Below are positions 50-10,703 of a stretch of DNA of 32,221 bases, one piece after another. Numbering within the stretch: the first letter of the stretch is position 1; each line of letters opens with the position of its first letter. The translations under genes were made by a program, and so were the position numbers. The notes below the pieces were generated by a model. That model did no database searches and was not told the origin of the DNA. It saw only the letters and a program-made list of their open reading frames with translations. Origin of the DNA: Candidatus Hydrogenedentota bacterium (GTDB lineage: Bacteria; Hydrogenedentota; Hydrogenedentia; Hydrogenedentales; CAITNO01); NCBI GenBank assembly GCA_012730105.1, contig JAAYBJ010000268.1:1-32221 (forward strand), in the 5' to 3' direction.

Positions 50-1315
50 ATGGTTTTACAGCACATCAGCCAGGACGGCTACCTGAGTGATTCCGACCTG
101 GAGACCTTTGTCGCCCGGGCCTGGGCGGACGAGGCGATCGACGGGAAGCGGATCCTTTTCATCATTCCCGATCAGACACGCAGCATGCCTATGCCGCAGC
201 TGTTCCGCGCGCTTCACGGCGCGGTGCATGGCCGCGCGGCGAGGATGGATTACCTGATCGCGCTGGGCACGCACCCGCCGATGACCGACATCATGATTGA
301 ACAGTTGCTGGGCATCACGCCCGAAGAGCGCCACGGCCGCTACGGCGACATCGGCATCTACAACCACGCGTGGCAGAACCCCGAAGCACTAGCCAGGATC
401 GGCACCCTGAGCGAGGAGGACATCGCCTCCATTTCCGGCGGGCTCATGGGCCAGTCGGTTGACGTGACCATCAACAAGCGCGTGCTCGACTATGATCTCG
501 TGTGCATCGTCGGCCCGGTATTCCCCCACGAGGTGGTGGGCTTCAGCGGGGGCAACAAGTATTTCTTCCCCGGCGTGTCCGGGGCGGACATTCTCAATCT
601 GTTCCACTGGCTCGGCGCGCTCATCACGAACTACTCCATCAACGGGACGAAACACACGCCGGTGCGCGCCGTGGTGGACCGGGCGGCCGCGCTGATCCCG
701 GTGGAAAAGCGCTGTTTCTGCCTGAACGTCATCGGTAAAAACACCAAGGCCATCTATTACGGCAGCCCCGAAGCGGCCTGGAGCGAGGCGGCCGACCTGA
801 GCGCCCAAACGCACATTATCTATAAGCCGCACCCGTTCCAGAGCGTGCTGGCAATGGCGCCGCCCATGTACGACGAGATCTGGGTGGCGGGCAAGTGCAT
901 GTACAAGCTGGAGCCGGTGGTCGCCGACGGCGGCGAACTGATCATTTACGGCAAGCACATCCGCGAGGTCAGCGTGACCCACGGGAAGCTCATCGCCCAA
1001 GTCGGCTACCATGTGCGCGACTATTTCCTGAAACAGATGGACCAGTTCGCCCACATCCCCGGGGGCATACTCGCCCATTCCACCCACGTCCGGGGCATGG
1101 GCACCTTTGAGAACGGCGTGGAACGGCCCCGCGTGCAGGTGACGCTGGCCACGGCCATTCCGGAAGCGGAGTGCCGCGCCATCAACCTGGGCTACCGCGA
1201 CCCGGACAGCATCAACCCGGACGACTGGCGCGACCGGGAGGAGGAAGGGCTGCTGCTGGTACCGAACGCCGGTGAAATTTTGTACCGGTTGACTGCCGGC
1301 GGCGCCGCCGAATAA
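50..1315 (+). CDS. LarA-like (DUF2088) lactate racemase-family protein
   Basis: A 421-aa protein of the nickel-pincer lactate racemase (LarA/DUF2088) family, whose members racemise or epimerise 2-hydroxyacids. An IPDQTR motif (D41, R44), GTHPPMTD (H75) and PHEVVGFSGGNKYFFPG (H160, K170) followed by H186 match the LarA active-site set. The 10- and 16-residue spacings of the last three residues equal those of H174, K184 and H200 in the Lactobacillus plantarum enzyme. Length is typical. An AGGAAA Shine-Dalgarno lies just before the ATG. No larB, larC or larE, which make the pincer cofactor, is nearby, so the exact substrate is open; homologues outside lactic acid bacteria act on other hydroxyacids. 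The next gene is phosphofructokinase, 147 bp downstream. Family assignment is firm; lactate as substrate is not. Confidence 0.85.
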   Translation: MVLQHISQDGYLSDSDLETFVARAWADEAIDGKRILFIIPDQTRSMPMPQLFRALHGAVHGRAARMDYLIALGTHPPMTDIMIEQLLGITPEERHGRYGDIGIYNHAWQNPEALARIGTLSEEDIASISGGLMGQSVDVTINKRVLDYDLVCIVGPVFPHEVVGFSGGNKYFFPGVSGADILNLFHWLGALITNYSINGTKHTPVRAVVDRAAALIPVEKRCFCLNVIGKNTKAIYYGSPEAAWSEAADLSAQTHIIYKPHPFQSVLAMAPPMYDEIWVAGKCMYKLEPVVADGGELIIYGKHIREVSVTHGKLIAQVGYHVRDYFLKQMDQFAHIPGGILAHSTHVRGMGTFENGVERPRVQVTLATAIPEAECRAINLGYRDPDSINPDDWRDREEEGLLLVPNAGEILYRLTAGGAAE

Positions 1316-1380
1316 AATTTGGTTTCCCAAACTAAAAAATTAGTTGCGTACAACGTAGAAGCGGTTTTCGGCCGTTTAAA

Positions 1381-1400
1381 ACGCGGCAAGGATGCCGCGT
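1381..1400. repeat. perfect 8-bp-stem palindrome, REP-like or hairpin
   Basis: ACGCGGCA and TGCCGCGT form a perfect 8-bp stem around an AGGA loop in the gap between the larA-like gene and phosphofructokinase. No T-tract follows, so it is not a classical intrinsic terminator. It may be a short REP-type dispersed palindrome or an mRNA 3'-end stabilising hairpin. Confidence 0.5.
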
Positions 1401-1462
1401 CTACATTATCTTCGCAGTTGCGTCGAATGCGATTGTACCTGTCATCTTAAGGAGTATCATCG

Positions 1463-2752
1463 ATGAAGAAGAATGTTATTGTCGCCCAGTCCGGCGGGCC
1501 GAGTCCGGTCATCAACAGTTCCCTGCGCGGGGTGGTGGACGCCTGCAAGGCGTTCCCCGACAATTTCGGCACCGTGTACGCGGGCTGGCACGGCATCGAG
1601 GGGGTGCTCAAGGAGGAGCTGCTGAACCTGAGCGCCCAGGATGAGGATGAAATCGCGCTGTTGCGCTACACCCCCGCCGCGGGCGCCATCGGCACCTGCC
1701 GCTACAAGTTGAAGTCCAGCCAGCAGGAGGATTTCCAGCGGGTCATCGAGGTCTTCAAGGCCCACGATATCGGCTATTTCTTTTATAACGGCGGCAACGA
1801 TTCCATGGACACGGCCAACAAGGTGGCCAAGATGGCCGCGTCGCAGGGCCTGGACCTGGTGGCGGTGGGCGTGCCCAAAACCATCGACAACGATGTCGGC
1901 GATTCCGAGTTCAAACTGATCGACCACACACCCGGTTACGGCAGCGTCGCCCGGTACTGGATGGCCATGGTGCAGAATGCCAACGAGGAAAACGCGGGAT
2001 CCTGCCCGGCCGACCCGGTGCTGGTGCTGCAGGCCATGGGCCGCAAGATCGGGTTCATTCCCGCGGCGGCGCGGCTGGCCGACCCGAAACGGGAAATGCC
2101 GCTCCAGATTTACCTGGCCGAATCCAAGGTCCCGGCGGAGGAGATGTGCGACCTGGTGAACGACCAGTTGAAGCGGGACGGGCGGTGCATCGTGGTGGTC
2201 AGCGAAGGCTTTGACGCAGGCGAACTGGGCGAAGTGAAAGACAGTTTCGGGCACACCAGTTTCGGGTCCTCCCAGATGACGGTCGCCCAAAAGGTGGTGA
2301 ACCTGTTGAATCAGCACGGGCTGCCCGTTCCCGGCAAAGCACGGGGCCAGGTGCCGGGCACGGATCAGCGCGCCACCACGGCCTACGCCTCGGTGGTCGA
2401 CCTGGATGAAGCCTACAAGGTGGGCCAGCAGGCGGTGCTGATCGCCGCGTCCGGCGAAAACGGCTGGATGGCGACTATCCTGCGCGAGCCGGGGCTGATT
2501 TACAACGTGCGCTATGACAAGGCGCCCCTGGAGGCCGTGGCCAATTCGGAACGCACCTTCCCCGCGGAGTGGATCGCGGCGAATAAGATTGACGTGACGG
2601 ACGCCTTCACGGCCTATGCCAAACCGCTTATCGGCGAAGATTGGCCGAGCATTCCGGTAATCAACGGCCGCCAGCGCCTGGCACGGCTGCAACCCGTTTT
2701 CGCGGAGAAGAAGCTTCCGGCATACGTTTTGGAAGCGCTACGAAAGAAATAA
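1463..2752 (+). CDS. PPi-type 6-phosphofructokinase
   Basis: A 429-aa phosphofructokinase-family enzyme that phosphorylates fructose 6-phosphate, probably using pyrophosphate, in cytosolic glycolysis and gluconeogenesis. The N-terminal glycine-rich GGPSP lies at residues 11-15, GGNDS at 110-114, the catalytic PKTIDND at 138-144, and QAMGRKIGF further on. ATP enzymes usually read GGDGS and PGTIDND; the Asp in GGND and the Lys in PKTIDND are the residues associated with PPi dependence. The size exceeds the ~320-aa bacterial ATP enzyme and fits the ~400-440-aa PPi/clade-II group. A strong AGGAG site precedes the ATG. PPi use is inferred from the two diagnostic residues. The gene stands alone, followed by a decamer repeat array. 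Confidence 0.92.
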   Translation: MKKNVIVAQSGGPSPVINSSLRGVVDACKAFPDNFGTVYAGWHGIEGVLKEELLNLSAQDEDEIALLRYTPAAGAIGTCRYKLKSSQQEDFQRVIEVFKAHDIGYFFYNGGNDSMDTANKVAKMAASQGLDLVAVGVPKTIDNDVGDSEFKLIDHTPGYGSVARYWMAMVQNANEENAGSCPADPVLVLQAMGRKIGFIPAAARLADPKREMPLQIYLAESKVPAEEMCDLVNDQLKRDGRCIVVVSEGFDAGELGEVKDSFGHTSFGSSQMTVAQKVVNLLNQHGLPVPGKARGQVPGTDQRATTAYASVVDLDEAYKVGQQAVLIAASGENGWMATILREPGLIYNVRYDKAPLEAVANSERTFPAEWIAANKIDVTDAFTAYAKPLIGEDWPSIPVINGRQRLARLQPVFAEKKLPAYVLEALRKK

Positions 2753-2780
2753 TACACCATCATAGGCACGCTCATTCCGT

Positions 2781-2826
2781 GTCAGACCGGGTCAGACCTG
2801 GTCGGACGCGGTCCGAACGGTCCGAC
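2781..2826. repeat. 10-bp tandem array, consensus GTCNGACNNN
   Basis: About 4.6 consecutive decamers share a GTCNGAC core, itself a 7-bp palindrome, with variable trinucleotides between cores; the fourth unit is degenerate (GTCCGAA). The array fills the gap after the phosphofructokinase stop. An almost identical array occurs at 26180-26229 and a 9-bp version at 15456-15491. The ~10-bp period puts all cores on one face of the helix. Function is unknown. Confidence 0.75.
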
Positions 2827-2891
2827 AATCAACAAGCGAAACCGCCCTTATGTGTCACCTGTTGCTCTTATTCTTGATGGGAACCCTGCCA

Positions 2892-5459
2892 ATGACTTCT
2901 ATTGCCGATGGACCAATGTTTGCCCCAGACTTTTTTGAAATTGGGCCGGGATGTTTGTGGCGGCACGAATACGAAGCGCCGCTGTCCATGAATGAATGGT
3001 TCATCGCGGGACCGGGGCCGGGTGTGGAACGAAGCGACTGGTTGCGTGCGGCGTTTGCCTACCGGAAACAGGCGCTGGCGGGAAAAGGCCGGCACCTCGC
3101 CATGAACGGCGATGGAGGCAACGGTTGGCTGCGCCTGGCGGAACCGCTGGCGGAAACCTTATCCCTGAAGAGCGGCGACGGGCTGTTTCTTTCGGTGACC
3201 GCCCGTTCCGTTGAGGGACGCAACCGATTGTGCTTCTTTGTGGACCATCTCAACGGCGCCAGGACACTCGTGGCATCGGCGCAACTGGACCTGCCTAATG
3301 ACGGCGAATGGCACGAACTTTCCCTGTCCCTGGACCTTCCGGATTTGGAAGCCGAAACAGGCACGGTCCGCCCCGGGCTGCTGCTGGAATCGGTGGAGGC
3401 GGGCGGACCCGCGCGGGCCGACCTGACAGGTGTGATTCTCGGCGTGGACGACACGGCGCGCATGGGCGCGTTCGGCCAGGTGTTGCGCGCCCTCGACACC
3501 ACCCACGTGTGCCGCTGTGTTTATGACCGTGACGACCTGCGCTGGACCCTTTCAGCCTTCGGCGCCTATTTCCTGTTTCTGTACGACCGGCGTTTCTGGC
3601 AACCGGGCGAAGGCTACCGGGTGGACGCCTTCATGGAGGAAATGCGTGAACGTTTTGGCGGCGTGGAAACGGTCATCCTCTGGCCGGCCTACCCGCGCAT
3701 CGGCACGGACGACCGCAACCAGTTCGATTTTTTCCGGGACATGCCGGGCGGGCTGGAAGGGTTAAAAGACGTCTGCAGCCGCTTCCACGAACACGGCGTG
3801 CGCGTCCAGATCCCCTTATTGCCCTGGGACAAGGGCACCCGCCGCGAAGACCAGCCCGACACGACGGTGATCGCCGACCTCGTCGCGCAGCTGGAGGCGG
3901 ACGGCGTGTTTCTGGACACACTGACAGGCGCGGATTCCGCGCTGCGTCAGGCCGTGGACGCGCGCGGCGCGGGGATCGCGCTGGTGCCGGAACTGGGCCC
4001 GCCCGTCCGCCAGCTGAGCCTGTGCAATCTTTCGTGGGCGCAATGGGCCCACGACCCGGAACCGCCGGGCATGCCCCAGTTGAAGTGGATCGAGCCGCGC
4101 CACATTCAGCACTTTACGAAACGCTGGGAGACCTCCCACCGGGACGAAATCGAAACGGCTTTTTTTAATGGTGCGGGGCTTCTCCTTTGGGAGAATATTT
4201 TCGGAACGGCCAACCCGGTTTCGGGAGAGGACGCGCTGCTCTGGAAGCGCAGCGCCTCCATTCTGCGTGCTTTCCCGGAAGTGTTCACCTCCACCCTGTG
4301 GGACCCCTTCTACCCGGCCGTCCAGGAAGACATGTATGTGCACCGGTGGCCCGGCGCGCCGACCACGCTCTTCACCCTGCGCAACTTCGGCGAGCCCCTG
4401 GAACACGGGCCGCTGCTGCGCTGGCAGTTCCCCGAGGAACGGCGGGCGGATGACATGCATGTTTATGATCTGTGGCAAGGCCGCCAGACCCGCTGGGAAA
4501 TGACGGAATTCGGCACGGTCCAGGTCTGGGGCGACATGGACCGGCTAGGCTGCATTGCGGTAACCTTTGGCAACGACCCGCGTCTTGAGGCATTCCTGGC
4601 CGCCCAGGCCGCGCTGGCGGAACAGGAAGCGCCCGCGCCGCAACCGCCGATTTACCCGGCACCGAAACCGCAGACAACCGTAAAGCCCTCCGGCGGCGAG
4701 GGCACGGGGATGGTACGCATTCCCGGCGGCACCCAGCGCATGCGCATTCAGCACACCCGCCGCGAGTGCGGCTGCTATCCTGACCCGGGGACGCCGGAGG
4801 AAGAGAAAAACCGGTTCACCTGGGGCAGTCCCCATGACGAGATGCTGGAACACGACTATACGGTGGAAGTGCCGGAGTTCCTCATAGACGAGGCCCAGGT
4901 CAGCAACGCGGACTTCAACCGCTTCCTGAAAGAAACAGGATACCGTCCGGAATACCCGGAGAACTTTCTGCGCCACTGGCCGGACGGCGTCATGCCGGAA
5001 GCCATCGCGGAACTGCCGGTGGTCTATGTGGATCTGGAAGATGCCCGCGCCTACGCGCGCTGGGCGGGCAAACGCCTGCCCGCTGAAGCCGAATGGCACC
5101 GGGCGGCGCAGGGAGAGGACGGGCGCACGTGGCCCTGGGGCAATGATTTCGACGCCGCGAAATGCGCTTCCGCCGCGTCCGGCCCGATGCCGGTGCGCTC
5201 GCTCCCGGAAGGACGCGGACCCCATGGCCTATACCATACCAGCGGCAACGTGTGGGAGTGGACGGAAAGCGAATATGAAGACGAATACACCCGCTTCTGC
5301 ATCCTTCGCGGCGGCTCCTGGTATCGTCCCTCGGGCAGCGGCTGGTACATGCCCGGCGGCCCCCAGCCTTTGCATTCCCACACCAAGTTCCTGCTCCTGT
5401 GGCCGGGGCTGGACCGCTGCGCCACAATCGGTTTTCGCTGCGCGAAAGATATACAATAG
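2892..5459 (+). CDS. Two-domain protein: barrel-like N-terminal region plus FGE/SUMF1 domain
   Basis: An 855-aa protein from the chosen ATG, which has GGGAA 8 nt upstream; in-frame ATGs at 2850 and 2877 are alternatives. Residues ~605-852 are a formylglycine-generating-enzyme-sulfatase (SUMF1/EgtB/PvdO) domain: MVRIPGG, VSNADFNRF, AGKRLPAEAEWHRAA, WPWGN, SGNVWEWTE, LRGGSW and a final GFRCA. The copper-binding Cys pair of true FGE, which should lie between LRGGSW and GFRCA, is absent, so sulfatase activation is unlikely. Residues ~1-200 look like a beta-rich domain. Residues ~205-520 resemble a glycoside-hydrolase-like (beta/alpha)8 barrel, with GVFLDTL around D342 and LLLWENIFGT around 433. 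A Pro/Ala-rich linker (~578-604) joins the halves. No clear signal peptide is visible. The FGE domain is certain; the barrel call is tentative and no activity can be assigned. Confidence 0.8.
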   Translation: MTSIADGPMFAPDFFEIGPGCLWRHEYEAPLSMNEWFIAGPGPGVERSDWLRAAFAYRKQALAGKGRHLAMNGDGGNGWLRLAEPLAETLSLKSGDGLFLSVTARSVEGRNRLCFFVDHLNGARTLVASAQLDLPNDGEWHELSLSLDLPDLEAETGTVRPGLLLESVEAGGPARADLTGVILGVDDTARMGAFGQVLRALDTTHVCRCVYDRDDLRWTLSAFGAYFLFLYDRRFWQPGEGYRVDAFMEEMRERFGGVETVILWPAYPRIGTDDRNQFDFFRDMPGGLEGLKDVCSRFHEHGVRVQIPLLPWDKGTRREDQPDTTVIADLVAQLEADGVFLDTLTGADSALRQAVDARGAGIALVPELGPPVRQLSLCNLSWAQWAHDPEPPGMPQLKWIEPRHIQHFTKRWETSHRDEIETAFFNGAGLLLWENIFGTANPVSGEDALLWKRSASILRAFPEVFTSTLWDPFYPAVQEDMYVHRWPGAPTTLFTLRNFGEPLEHGPLLRWQFPEERRADDMHVYDLWQGRQTRWEMTEFGTVQVWGDMDRLGCIAVTFGNDPRLEAFLAAQAALAEQEAPAPQPPIYPAPKPQTTVKPSGGEGTGMVRIPGGTQRMRIQHTRRECGCYPDPGTPEEEKNRFTWGSPHDEMLEHDYTVEVPEFLIDEAQVSNADFNRFLKETGYRPEYPENFLRHWPDGVMPEAIAELPVVYVDLEDARAYARWAGKRLPAEAEWHRAAQGEDGRTWPWGNDFDAAKCASAASGPMPVRSLPEGRGPHGLYHTSGNVWEWTESEYEDEYTRFCILRGGSWYRPSGSGWYMPGGPQPLHSHTKFLLLWPGLDRCATIGFRCAKDIQ

Positions 5460-8533: not shown

Positions 8534-8968
8534 TCACATATTCGGCGCACTCTGGCGGCGTTGTTGTTCCACCAGGTCCAGCAGGAAGTTGCGGGCCTGT
8601 TCGGCTTTCAGGGCGTGAGGATTTACCCTGCCAGTGGTAGTGTATTTCGCCAGGGTTTCTTTGTCGAGTATATTCGGACGGAGAAAACCCATGGTCCAGT
8701 TTTCAAACAGGCGCCCGTCAACTTCGGTGTATTCCAGCAGAGTAATATTTTTGTGCCGCTCATCCGACGTGATCCGGGAGTAAATTTCGTTGACCGCGTC
8801 ACGTGGCCCTTCCAGGCATTGCATAAAAAAGGCGGGATCATAACACAACACACCCGAGATGCCCCGTTCTGCGTTGTTCTTTTTCGAGGCGGACAGGATA
8901 TCCTGCAACGCTTCTGTGTCGCAGGCGTCCGTCATGGTGCTCACATAAATCAATCTCACCATATGCAT
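8534..8968 (-). CDS. BLUF-domain blue-light sensor protein
   Basis: A BLUF protein (sensor of blue light using FAD), 144 aa from the chosen ATG, with a C-terminal helical tail and no attached output domain. Numbered from an upstream GTG at 8989, Y15, N39, Q57, W98 and M100 keep exactly the spacing of Y21, N45, Q63, W104 and M106 in AppA, so the flavin photocycle residues are complete (RLIYVS, GISGVLCY, FMQCLEG, NWTMGF). The ATG at 8968 has AAGGAA 6 nt upstream and puts the key Tyr at position 8, as in other short BLUF proteins, so it is preferred. Short BLUFs work by docking a partner such as a diguanylate cyclase, EAL protein or regulator; no partner is adjacent. It converges with the plus-strand membrane-protein gene, 11 bp away. 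Confidence 0.93.
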   Translation of the reverse strand: MHMVRLIYVSTMTDACDTEALQDILSASKKNNAERGISGVLCYDPAFFMQCLEGPRDAVNEIYSRITSDERHKNITLLEYTEVDGRLFENWTMGFLRPNILDKETLAKYTTTGRVNPHALKAEQARNFLLDLVEQQRRQSAPNM

Positions 8969-9032
8969 AGCCGGTTCCTTTACTGACACCCCTTGTGTTT
9001 AACTAAAGATTCTCCCCTGTTTATCGTTTTGG

Positions 9033-9157: not shown

Positions 9158-9998
9158 GTCTTTCCGGTTTTTCACGGCCGGACCGCAGCCTTCGACGATA
9201 GCATGATCGCCATAACCGGTTAAGTCCCGCAGGGACGATTGAATACCCGACTCATTCAACCGTCCCTACAGGACGAGCATAAATAACGCCCCGACATCCC
9301 CGCCTCTAAAGAAGCGGGCTACCATCAATCGTCCCTACGGGACTGGATGGAAGCACGCCGAGGGTAATGTAAACATATCGGTATCCAGATTCATAACACT
9401 CAAGGAAAGAATTGCAGACTTTTCTGTGCCTGCCGACAGATTTTGAAGATGGGTTCCGGTCTTTTCGCGGTCGGGCCACACCCTTTGATAACACATAGAC
9501 ACCCATACCCGGGTTAAGTCCCGTAGGGACGATTGAGGGTAGCCCGCCAGTTCAGTGGCGGGTAGAATACCCTTTCCCTTACCAAGTCCCGTAGGGACGA
9601 TTGAATACCCAACTCATTCAACCGTCCCTACAGGACGAGCATAAATAACGCCCCGACATCCCCGCCTCTAAAGAAGCGGGCTACCATCAATCGTCCCTAC
9701 GAGACTGGATGGAAGCGCACCGAGGGTAATGTAAACATATCGGTATCCAGATTCATAACACTCAAGGAAAGAATTGCAGACTTTTCTGTGCCTGCCGACA
9801 GATTTTGAAGATGGGTTCCGGTCTTTTCGCGGTCGGGCCGCAGCCTTCGACAATAGCGTGATCGCCATAACCGATTCAGTCCCGTAGGGACGATTGAGGG
9901 TAGCCCGCCAGTTCAGTGGCGGGTAGAATACCCTTTCCCTTACCAAGTCCCGTAGGGACGATTGAATACCCGACTCATTCAACCGTCCCTACGGGAAT
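9158..9998. repeat. ~361-bp tandem repeat array built of palindromic 20-mers
   Basis: Two full units (9222-9583 and 9584-9944) are followed by a truncated third (to ~9998) and preceded by a truncated unit end (9158-9221). Each unit contains the 20-mer AGTCCCGTAGGGACGATTGA, whose core GTCCC-GTA-GGGAC is a palindrome. It occurs on the plus strand at 9223, 9517, 9585, 9878 and 9946, and on the minus strand (exact or diverged) at 9256, 9325, 9618, 9687 and 9979. Two further hairpins lie in each unit: CCCGCCA/TGGCGGG, and CCCGC/GCGGG around TCTAAAGA. The two full units are nearly identical outside one ~50-bp stretch. Small open frames inside are repeat artefacts. It lies between the BLUF gene and the XRE-cupin gene; no transposase is present. 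Confidence 0.9.
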
Positions 9999-10127: not shown

Positions 10128-10703
10128 ATGGTTAAAGAATGTCACATAGGCGGCAAAATCCGCCAGTTGCGGGAAACCCTCCAGATGAGCGCGGAAGAAC
10201 TTGCCGGAAAATGCCAGATGAATCCGGCGGTCATTGAACATATCGAAACCGGCGAACTCTTGCCGTCGCTGGCGCCGTTGATGAAAATCGCGCGGGCGCT
10301 GGGCGTGCGCCTGGGCACGTTTCTGGACGATGAAACGCAGGGAGGCCCTGTGGTGGTGCGCGGCGGACAGGCGGAATCGATGGTTCGTTTTTCCGGTTCC
10401 GGCCCGGTCAACCAGGGAGAACTGGACTTCTATTCGCTGGCCTCCCACAAGCGGGACCGGCACATGGAACCCTTCATCGTGGATGTGCACCCCGGGGAAG
10501 AAAAAGCGCCCAGCCTGTCCTCCCACGAGGGCGAGGAGTTTCTGTATGTGCTTCGGGGCGCCATAGAGGTGCGTTACGGCAAGGAAACGCGCCAGATTGG
10601 CGAAGGGGACAGCATTTATTATGATTCCATTGTACCCCATGAGGTGCGGGCCGCGGGTGGCGCGGACGCGCGCATTCTCGCCGTGGTATATGCGCCGTTT
10701 TAA
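10128..10703 (+). CDS. XRE-family HTH regulator with C-terminal cupin domain
   Basis: A 191-aa transcription regulator of the common XRE-cupin architecture. Residues ~8-62 form a helix-turn-helix domain (IRQLRETLQMSAEELAGKC, then IEHIETGELLPSL) for operator binding. Residues ~105-190 form a cupin barrel (SSHEGEEFLYVLRG, IGEGDSIYYDS, PHEV) that probably senses a small molecule or metal. GGAG lies 8 nt before the ATG. It is the first gene of a row with a second cupin and an iron alcohol dehydrogenase, so it may regulate that operon. Family members control alcohol, polyamine or amino-acid metabolism; the ligand here is unknown. The upstream 130 bp contain a possible TATACT -10 at 10048 with a poor -35. 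Confidence 0.9.
   Translation: MVKECHIGGKIRQLRETLQMSAEELAGKCQMNPAVIEHIETGELLPSLAPLMKIARALGVRLGTFLDDETQGGPVVVRGGQAESMVRFSGSGPVNQGELDFYSLASHKRDRHMEPFIVDVHPGEEKAPSLSSHEGEEFLYVLRGAIEVRYGKETRQIGEGDSIYYDSIVPHEVRAAGGADARILAVVYAPF

What the first reader, a model, noticed from the sequence alone, without database searches (positions are those of the whole stretch)
9158..9998. ~361-bp repeat array made of inverted 20-mers, without transposase
Two nearly complete units plus truncated ends carry about ten copies of AGTCCCGTAGGGACGATTGA in both orientations plus two other hairpins. The near identity of the two units implies recent duplication. The fixed arrangement of hairpins could be a structured RNA or a mobile non-coding element.
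Basis: partly seen in the sequence, partly recalled or inferred. Interest (0 to 1): 0.5.

Follow-up and report, generated by a model that had tools for sequence, protein, structure and literature searches.

The report
Transposon ends mistaken for RNA
The repeat array is a cluster of small gene-less elements, probably jumping DNA, whose hairpin ends are listed in the Rfam RNA library as a possible small RNA but which in other bacteria, of several phyla, flank a gene for a single-strand-DNA transposase.

Summary
The array is real: ten copies of the 20-mer (0-3 mismatches), units 361-362 bp apart, with 57 further places (<=2 mismatches) elsewhere in the genome. It is one complete 190-bp element (9517-9706) and two truncated ones, separated by repeated ~171-bp spacers. 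Each end reads [hairpin A]-9 nt-TAG-[hairpin H]-linker-[hairpin A']. The outer A+H part is Rfam RF01687, 'Acido-Lenti-1 RNA'. In other genomes such ends flank a ~150-aa HUH/Y1 transposase (Y-x3-Q-x2-HH), fitting TnpA-Y1 subclass 1.2, whose describing paper denies it IS properties and REPs. A covariance model trained only on transposase-flanking ends of other genomes finds the window ends at E ~1e-6. A Sumerlaeota element (L250) carries the window's exact 20-mer and has the gene where the window has a short centre. Two same-genus genomes lack the array at the orthologous site. Stem mismatches are strand-symmetric (35 G.T, 38 A.C), favouring DNA over RNA selection. Best reading: non-autonomous (REPIN/MITE-like) elements of subclass-1.2 transposons. 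In the window's genome only a transposase fragment at a contig end was found, so present mobility is unknown.

The parts
9169..9222 (+). partial copy of the end of the inter-element spacer, left of the array
   Evidence: part of a 74-nt match 9169-9242 / 9824-9897, 89%
9223..9344 (.). truncated element A: inner A' (+), inner A' (-), H, outer A (-); lacks the left outer A+H
   Evidence: RF01687 at 9299-9344 + (38.6 bits); R1 at 9299-9343 -, E 1.1e-6
9345..9516 (.). spacer 1 (172 bp); its core (spacer 101-146, window 9445-9490) is a different dispersed repeat
   Evidence: 40 places reported, 2 of them the window's own spacers
9517..9706 (.). complete element B (190 bp): left end A-TAG-H-linker-A', short centre, right end A'-linker-H-CTA-A
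   Evidence: R1 at 9518-9562 + (E 2.2e-6) and 9661-9705 - (E 1.1e-4)
9517..9562 (-). RF01687 (Acido-Lenti-1) match = left outer end of element B (A + TAG + H)
   Evidence: 37.8 bits, gathering 37
9661..9706 (+). right outer end of element B, below the RF01687 gathering score
   Evidence: 27.3 bits; R1 E 1.1e-4
9707..9877 (.). spacer 2 (171 bp); its first 147 bp are 96% identical to spacer 1
9878..9998 (.). truncated element C: outer A, TAG, H, inner A' (+), inner A' (-); lacks the right outer A+H
   Evidence: RF01687 at 9878-9923 - (37.8 bits); R1 at 9879-9923 +, E 2.2e-6
8534..8989 (-). flanking gene left of the array; its counterpart marks the site in G002/G003 (BLUF-like by inspection, recalled, not searched)
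10128..10703 (+). flanking gene right of the array; its counterpart marks the site (HTH-plus-cupin type by inspection, recalled, not searched)

Best explanation
The array is a cluster of non-autonomous (MITE/REPIN-like) copies of an IS200-like transposon. Its autonomous form is a ~450-bp gene for a single-domain HUH/Y1 transposase (TnpA-Y1 subclass 1.2) between two ~90-bp inverted ends, each made of hairpin A, about 9 nt, a TAG-footed hairpin H, a linker and a second hairpin A'. SHOWN: the window element has this anatomy with a short centre instead of the gene; such ends flank such genes elsewhere; in one genome (G054) 20 pairs of cognate ends stand too close together for the gene against one pair around it; two congeners lack the array at the orthologous site. 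INFERRED from known IS200/IS605 biochemistry (recalled): TnpA recognises the ends as hairpins in single-stranded DNA, cuts with its tyrosine and moves them as a single-stranded intermediate, acting in trans on gene-less copies. INFERRED: the ~361-bp tandem array grew locally afterwards by duplication or recombination between the A hairpins with the spacer included, as described for REP clusters (PMC3733652 section 5). Rfam 'Acido-Lenti-1' is thus the outer half of a transposon end, not primarily an RNA. In the window's genome the elements may now be immobile, since only a fragment of a cognate transposase was found.
For: 1) Architecture at transposases. 38 Y1_Tnp loci were examined: 8 of the own genome's 10 matches (two with stops left out) and the 30 loci fetched of 97 matches in ten relatives. 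25 of 38 carry Y-x3-Q-x2-HH. An A-TAG-H structure in the right orientation is on at least one side in 21 of these 25 and 0 of the other 13; shuffled flanks 13 of 3800 (the rule was written after seeing some of these loci). Inverted repeats across the gene beat all 30 shuffles in 20 of 24 testable subclass-1.2 loci (scores 50-161) and, weakly (28-43), in 5 of 12 others. In 20 later loci from ten genomes of other groups the rule is met in 16 (L235-L254). 2) A model (R1) from 12 transposase-flank ends of other genomes finds the window's outer ends at E 1.1e-6, 2.2e-6, 2.2e-6 and 1.1e-4; best hit outside the array E 0.4. 3) L250 (Sumerlaeota genome G067): its left end shares the first 21 nt with the window end; TAGCCC, H, linker and inner A' follow in the same order; the gene is 1501-1953. 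L171 (Calditrichaceae) and L119 (Bacteroidota) are built alike. 4) RF01687 passes gathering on both sides of the gene in inverted orientation in 6 of 15 subclass-1.2 loci scanned (L053, L091, L240, L241, L250, L253; the 15 were chosen mostly for GTCCC-type ends) and nowhere in 5 control loci. 5) G054: 54 copies of the cognate end (<=3 mismatches), 21 outward pairs, 20 spaced 162-313 bp (mode 224) and one at 588 bp around the gene; 26 copies in G056 of the same genus, 0 in six genomes of other genera. 6) 60 genomes: RF01687 and subclass 1.2 both 34, RF01687 only 6, transposase only 6, neither 14 (Fisher p 7e-5); 10 of 10 named genomes picked for the end motif encode subclass 1.2. 7) Array absent in G002 and G003. 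8) The window genome's transposase fragment is closest to L053/L246/L245/L253/L237/L250, most of which have this end type. 9) Protein profile matches solved IS608/ISDra2-type transposases, E 3e-13 to 1.3e-16. 10) Strand-symmetric H-stem mismatches.
Against: No intact subclass-1.2 transposase was found in the window's genome: only a classical IS200 protein and a 41-residue fragment at a contig end with stops upstream. No transposase with the window's exact H hairpin was found. 6 of 40 RF01687-positive genomes had no subclass-1.2 hit (the own genome, counted so because its one profile hit is the classical IS200 protein, and G055 with 61 RF01687 hits, among them). The partial rank correlation given genome size is only 0.29. 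4 of 25 and 4 of 20 subclass-1.2 loci did not meet the A-TAG-H rule. RF01687 at gathering missed 4 of the 15 chosen loci altogether (L052, L242, L243, L247) and the CP059258.1 array (L255). The covariation counts lean towards the structure, because the ends were picked by a rule that demands perfect stems. In the A hairpin alone G.T exceeded A.C (9 vs 3, few cells). No transposition, cutting or single-stranded intermediate was observed. The array is from a 343-contig draft, so its copy number is not secure. At the site in G002/G003 flank homology is partial, the junction was not resolved, and a lone GGTAGCCCGTC string there could be chance or a remnant.
Confidence: 0.86

Rival explanations
1. 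Acido-Lenti-1 is a genuine small RNA (or mRNA 3' element) whose genes happen to be repeated; the array is a multi-copy sRNA locus.
For: Rfam match over gathering at three window places; Weinberg et al. 2010 rate it 'y' (probably) an RNA in Table 1 (passage); stems are conserved with changes on both sides (ends chosen for perfect stems).
Against: Paired changes are equally expected of DNA palindromes. G.T and A.C mismatches in H stems are equal (35 vs 38 in 193 distinct elements, 52 vs 57 in 338; copies are related, so not independent), whereas an RNA constraint should favour G.U. Cognate ends come in outward pairs at set distances and RF01687 matches flank transposase genes.
Confidence: 0.06
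2. The element is an ordinary GTAG REP/BIME moved by a long RAYT (TnpA-REP, class 2) of the kind also present in this genome.
For: The H hairpin has a GTAG or xTAG foot; the window's genome encodes several long RAYT-like proteins, one (L013) with its own GTAG hairpins around it; REP clusters with reiterated flanking DNA are known (section 5 of PMC3733652).
Against: None of the 10 Y1 loci of the window genome has the 20-mer or its core in its fetched flanks, some of which are short at contig ends; A-TAG-H was found at 0 of 13 loci without the subclass-1.2 motif.
Confidence: 0.04
3. Assembly artefact: the tandem units are collapsed or wrongly joined reads of dispersed copies.
For: The genome is a 343-contig draft and several copies lie near contig ends.
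Against: Units differ by substitutions (94% and 98% identity), three other loci have arrays with other periods, and dense arrays beside a transposase gene occur in a single 4.69-Mb record titled chromosome, CP059258.1, itself a MAG.
Confidence: 0.05

Closest known systems
TnpA-Y1 subclass 1.2 (Quentin et al. 2018, PMC6006769; abstract, sections 13, 17, 18, 27 and passages read)
   Same: Length ~150 aa, mostly DH[VI]H, WQ, Y-x3-Q-x2-HH in the transposases that carry these ends
   Different: [quoted passage not shown] Here 21 of 25 and 16 of 20 examined members have structured ends on at least one side, such ends also occur as gene-less repeats, and the genomes are mostly outside the Cyanobacteria and Bacteroidetes to which the paper mostly restricts it.
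Rfam RF01687 Acido-Lenti-1 (Weinberg et al. 2010, PMC2864571; passages read)
   Same: Its 46 positions coincide with the outer A+H part of the window ends and of transposon ends
   Different: Listed there as a probable RNA of Acidobacteria and Lentisphaerae; here it is part of the end of a probable mobile DNA element, and an exact end motif occurs in records titled as about ten phylum-level groups
REPINs and RAYT REPtrons (Bertels and Rainey 2011, PMC3116915, abstract and outline seen; Di Nocera et al. 2013, PMC3733652, abstract, sections 5 and 16 and passages read)
   Same: Inverted doublets of tagged hairpins, gene-less copies in excess of the transposase, clusters reiterated with flanking DNA
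   Different: Each end holds three hairpins (A, TAG-H, A') instead of one tagged hairpin, and the transposase is class 1 (subclass 1.2), not a class-2 RAYT
TIRtrons / TIRYT (Di Nocera et al. 2013)
   Same: Y1-type transposase between inverted repeats that can also occur as a dispersed family; some 'double palindromic'
   Different: Quentin et al. assign the 26 TIRYT examples to subclasses 2.1, 2.2 and 2.5 (passage), none to 1.2; I did not see the figure sequences
IS608 / ISDra2 (IS200/IS605)
   Same: HUH/Y1 family by sequence (PDB matches) and hairpin ends
   Different: The four classical IS200-type loci examined (L009, L049, L050, L058) lack the A-TAG-H ends

Membership tests
Rfam RF01687 Acido-Lenti-1 | score at or above the curated gathering score (37 bits) | tested here: met
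   three window stretches, 38.6, 37.8, 37.8 bits; 21 of 31 genome hits at E <= 0.01 over the cut-off (150 of 1298 candidates scored; 1 of 14 control genomes rang, below the cut-off)
Rfam RF01687 Acido-Lenti-1 | acts as an RNA (type 'Gene; sRNA') | tested here: inconclusive
   mismatch symmetry in H stems speaks against RNA-strand constraint; no transcript data available
Non-autonomous element (MITE/REPIN) of a subclass-1.2 transposon | inverted ends homologous to those of a gene-bearing element | tested here: met
   R1 model; alignment to L250 ends
Non-autonomous element (MITE/REPIN) of a subclass-1.2 transposon | no transposase gene inside; multiple dispersed copies | tested here: met
Non-autonomous element (MITE/REPIN) of a subclass-1.2 transposon | site without the element in relatives | tested here: met
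   G002 and G003 lack the array between the same two genes; R1 finds nothing there at E <= 10, nearest 20-mer match 9-10 mismatches; junction not resolved
Non-autonomous element (MITE/REPIN) of a subclass-1.2 transposon | cognate transposase present in the same genome | tested here: not met
   only a 41-residue fragment at a contig end; draft genome
Non-autonomous element (MITE/REPIN) of a subclass-1.2 transposon | mobilisation in trans demonstrated | not testable with these tools
   needs an excision or cleavage assay
TnpA-Y1 subclass 1.2 (for the partner proteins) | DH[IV]H, WQ, Y-x3-Q-x2-HH, ~148 aa | tested here: met
   25 of 38 loci have Y-x3-Q-x2-HH, all 25 with WQ and most with DH[VI]H; a few have NHVH, DHLH, DHMH or lack the HUH match; second H of HUH (H57), Y115, Q119, H122, H123 invariant in the alignment
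TnpA-Y1 subclass 1.2 (for the partner proteins) | clusters with the published members and shares their C-terminal domain | not tested
   published sequences and profiles were not available
GTAG REP of a class-2 RAYT | repeat flanks a RAYT gene | tested here: not met
   no 20-mer in the fetched flanks of the 10 Y1 loci of the genome; 0 of 13 non-1.2 loci with A-TAG-H

The most novel reading that the evidence does not exclude
Subclass-1.2 HUH transposases, described as lacking IS properties, are the engines of a large, cross-phylum REP system of their own, with a distinct end architecture (A-TAG-H-linker-A'). Rfam's Acido-Lenti-1 'RNA' is one sequence type of these ends, and end type and transposase lineage have evolved together. 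Where transposase and arrays lie together (CP059258.1, Desulfococcaceae HSG8), units of ~50-70 bp stand in tandem next to the gene, a possible product of the enzyme itself.
Probability: 0.74. Interest if true: 0.72.

Novelty: new variant of a known kind. Interest (0 to 1): 0.63.

Why it matters
An Rfam family of unknown function gets a concrete, testable identity as part of a transposon end, and a transposase group published as having no IS properties gets a candidate substrate. It would also change how such marks are read: a 2026 paper (PMC13298647, one passage read) found no evidence of mobile elements near Tannerella protease genes yet suggested that Acido-Lenti-1 'ncRNAs' beside two of them may regulate those proteases; on the present evidence such marks could themselves be traces of mobile DNA (the Tannerella copies were not examined here). 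DNA palindromes with paired changes can pass as RNA families, and the strand-symmetry count used here is a cheap check.

Tried and rejected
Considered and set aside without a dedicated test: CRISPR-like reading (the spacers are themselves repeats). Rejected: a class-2 RAYT of the same genome as the mover. 4 of 116 named loci hold a subclass-1.2 frame in the fetched DNA, only mild enrichment; in three (L119, L171, L218) the motif stands beside the gene, in L135 about 800 bp away. Border analysis of 32 outer ends showed a sharp edge at AGTCCC and only a weak T-T-A/C preference just outside; no cleavage site could be named. Of 35 ends found by the rule, the 20 with shorter loops were aligned first, then 17, then 12 in register, from which the model was built; the dropped rows include both ends of L053, the one most like RF01687. 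The A-TAG-H scan has false positives (3 in the window outside the array; L069 downstream is probably one). My first pass over the loci did not turn minus-strand loci; redone. The count (39 of 50) includes loci already counted, so only L235-L254 are used as new; two of these (L237, L241) are the genes of L171 and L119, which were found through the motif.

Full report
OBSERVATION. The repeat is in the sequence as described. Two direct repeats of 290 and 122 nt recur at 362 and 361 bp. Ten copies of the 20-mer, 0-3 mismatches, lie between 9223 and 9998 in both orientations. In the whole genome (5.63 Mb, 343 contigs) the 20-mer has 65 places at up to 2 mismatches, 8 of them in the window, against 0 for the reversed control. 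The complete copy 9517-9706 forms one long hairpin as single-stranded DNA (-53.4 kcal/mol, z -11.3).

ANATOMY. 20 genome regions were fetched and scanned, 17 of them printed beside the window. They show the real unit: a ~190-bp element with two inverted ends, often present as partial copies. Each end reads A (AGTCCCGTAGGGACG...), about 9 nt, TAG, hairpin H (CCCGCC..GGCGGG or CCCGC..GCGGG), a linker, then a second A'. The window holds one complete element (9517-9706), one lacking its left outer A+H (9223-9344) and one lacking its right outer A+H (9878-9998), with spacers of 172 and 171 bp between. Three other arrays in the genome repeat at 489, 390 and 457 bp, so the 361-bp period is local. The outer edge is sharp: over 32 outer ends conservation stops at AGTCCC, with a weak T-T-A/C preference outside. 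The spacer core is a different dispersed repeat (40 places reported, 40 of 86 candidates scored).

RFAM. Three window stretches pass the gathering score of RF01687, Acido-Lenti-1; genome-wide 31 stretches at E <= 0.01, 21 over cut-off, 150 of 1298 candidates scored. The 46 positions equal the outer A+H part of an end. Of 60 genomes (the own one plus relatives), 40 have a match at E <= 0.001, up to 80 per genome; 84 candidates per genome were scored, so high counts are lower bounds; 0 of 14 control genomes.

WHAT THE ENDS BELONG TO. Y1 transposase matches (PF01797) number 10 in the own genome and 97 in ten relatives rich in RF01687, one of which (G055) has none. I examined 38 loci: 8 of the own 10 (two with stops left out) and the 30 fetched from relatives. 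Comparing upstream with reverse-complemented downstream DNA showed long inverted repeats with the architecture of the window element. 25 of 38 carry Y-x3-Q-x2-HH with WQ and mostly DH[VI]H. Inverted repeats beat all 30 shuffles in 20 of 24 testable loci of this kind (scores 50-161) and, with low scores (28-43), in 5 of 12 others. A structural rule (A, gap 2-13, [TC]AG, H) is met on at least one side in 21 of 25 and 0 of 13 others; shuffled flanks met it in 13 of 3800. The rule was framed after seeing some of these loci; on 20 later loci from ten genomes of other groups it was met in 16. The motif set fits TnpA-Y1 subclass 1.2 of Quentin et al. 2018 (Table 1 and section 18), for which they state no REP, generally no IS200-type terminal structures, and no IS properties. 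A profile of the 25 proteins matches solved IS608 and ISDra2-type transposases. NCBIfam names two of three such proteins tested IS200/IS605 family transposase above its cut-off, the third below it.

TRANSFER TEST. A covariance model (R1) built from 12 transposase-flank ends of other genomes finds the four outer ends in the window at E 1.1e-6, 2.2e-6, 2.2e-6 and 1.1e-4, and a weak fifth place inside the array (9947-9969, E 0.015); the best hit outside the array has E 0.4. On the training ends 7 of 12 pairs change on both sides and 0 of 500 shuffles reach the covariation score, but these ends had been picked by a rule that demands perfect stems, so those counts lean towards the structure. R1 also finds a second family in the own genome (61 hits at E <= 1 in all) whose ends resemble those of transposases in the congeners G002 and G003.

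AUTONOMOUS COUNTERPARTS. L250, from a Candidatus Sumerlaeota genome, reads AGTCCCGTAGGGACGATTGAG.GTAGCCC, H, linker, A', gene 1501-1953, then the inverted end: the window element with a gene in place of its short centre. L171 (Calditrichaceae), L119 (Bacteroidota) and L053 (G054) are built alike. Rfam's own model, at gathering, hits both sides of the gene in inverted orientation in 6 of 15 subclass-1.2 loci scanned (L053, L091, L240, L241, L250, L253), has no RF01687 hit in 4 of them (L052, L242, L243, L247), and none in five control loci; the 15 were chosen mostly for GTCCC-type ends. In a second scan L119 is hit on both sides; L255, the CP059258.1 region, has no hit at gathering although the exact motif occurs there 22 times. 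In G054 the cognate end occurs 54 times (<=3 mismatches): 21 outward pairs, 20 of them 162-313 bp apart (mode 224, too short for the gene) and one, 588 bp apart, around the gene, with one neighbouring pair of the other orientation. G056 of the same genus has 26 ends and 8 pairs; six genomes of other genera, the own one included, have none.

DISTRIBUTION. All 10 of 10 genomes then picked from different groups encode subclass 1.2 (E <= 1e-15, best E in each at most 3.4e-50). Among the 60 genomes: both 34, RF01687 only 6, transposase only 6, neither 14 (Fisher p 7e-5; partial rank correlation given genome size 0.29). The own genome was entered as without transposase, because its single profile hit (E 2.8e-16) is the classical IS200 protein. 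On a tree of 66 such proteins the 14 with GTCCC-type ends need 9 changes against 13.0 in shuffles, 0 of 500 as low; part of this sample was found through the end motif, which favours clustering. The window genome's only subclass-1.2 trace, 41 residues cut by a contig end with stops upstream, is nearest to L053 and its kin.

DNA OR RNA. If the RNA strand were constrained, G.U should be tolerated and A.C not. In H stems of 193 distinct elements there are 35 G.T and 38 A.C mismatches, in a broader set of 338, 52 and 57; copies are related, so the counts are not independent. In the A hairpin the counts are 9 and 3, too few to weigh but in the other direction. With outward pairs at set distances and transposase linkage, selection on DNA structure is the better account. 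That some copies are also transcribed and used was not tested.

SITE WITHOUT THE ARRAY. The two genes flanking the array are neighbours in G002 and G003 with 334 and 384 bp between the aligned parts, against about 1.2-1.3 kb in the window. R1 finds nothing in those loci at E <= 10 and the nearest 20-mer match has 9-10 mismatches; a lone GGTAGCCCGTC string is present in both. Homology next to the insertion is too weak to read the junction.

ORGANISM. A relative of the same order, G052, has a contig of 10,863 bases with the motif at the same place as DDYW01000197.1, Candidatus Hydrogenedentes UBA2224, so the window probably comes from Hydrogenedentota (inference).

PRINT. In the searchable library Acido-Lenti-1 appears in three papers; passages of all three were read and none of those passages links it to a transposase. 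Searches for REP/RAYT/GTAG, RAYT groups, IS200 MITEs, Rfam repeats, TIRYT, TnpA-Y1 subclass and Verrucomicrobia repeat terms showed no such link in their listings. Most subscription papers are not held. That Acido-Lenti-1 was noted near group II introns is recalled, not from a call.

VERDICT. New variant of a known kind: REPIN/MITE-like elements of a transposase subclass for which none were reported in the papers seen, and a re-reading of an Rfam family.

Noticed in passing
G000 contigs C57, C81, C153, C328, C73, C266 (L256, L257, L259-L262): A second element family in the window's genome with the same A-TAG-H architecture but other sequence (mostly AGCCCAGGGTTGCGGTACTCCGC..CCCTGGG), resembling the ends of the subclass-1.2 transposases of congeners G002 and G003.
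   Followed up: partly
window 9445-9490 and 38 other reported places in G000: A different dispersed repeat (around GGTTCCGGTCTTTTCGCGGTCGGGCC) forms the core of both spacers; the search reported 40 places and scored only 40 of 86 candidates.
   Followed up: no
L245 (Desulfococcaceae HSG8 genome G068) 882-3398; L255 (CP059258.1) around 1,719,200: Tandem arrays lie directly beside a subclass-1.2 transposase gene: RF01687 matches in mostly 68-71-bp steps, all in one orientation (L245), and motif copies in ~50-bp and ~250-bp steps (L255).
   Followed up: partly
L013 (G000:C316): A RAYT-like gene with many GTAG hairpins of two types around it, a classical-looking REPtron in the same genome.
   Followed up: no
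L011 2149-2759 (G000:C56): Group II intron matches (RF02005, RF00029) downstream of a RAYT-like gene.
   Followed up: no
G063 (reached through L123, record titled Akkermansia muciniphila MAG): The genome is given as about 7.9 Mb with five subclass-1.2 matches, one with a stop inside, far above the usual size of that species (recalled); the label or the bin may be wrong.
   Followed up: no
G055: 61 RF01687 matches but no Y1_Tnp or subclass-1.2 match, while G052 of the same genus has three subclass-1.2 matches: a candidate for recent loss of the mover, or an assembly gap.
   Followed up: no
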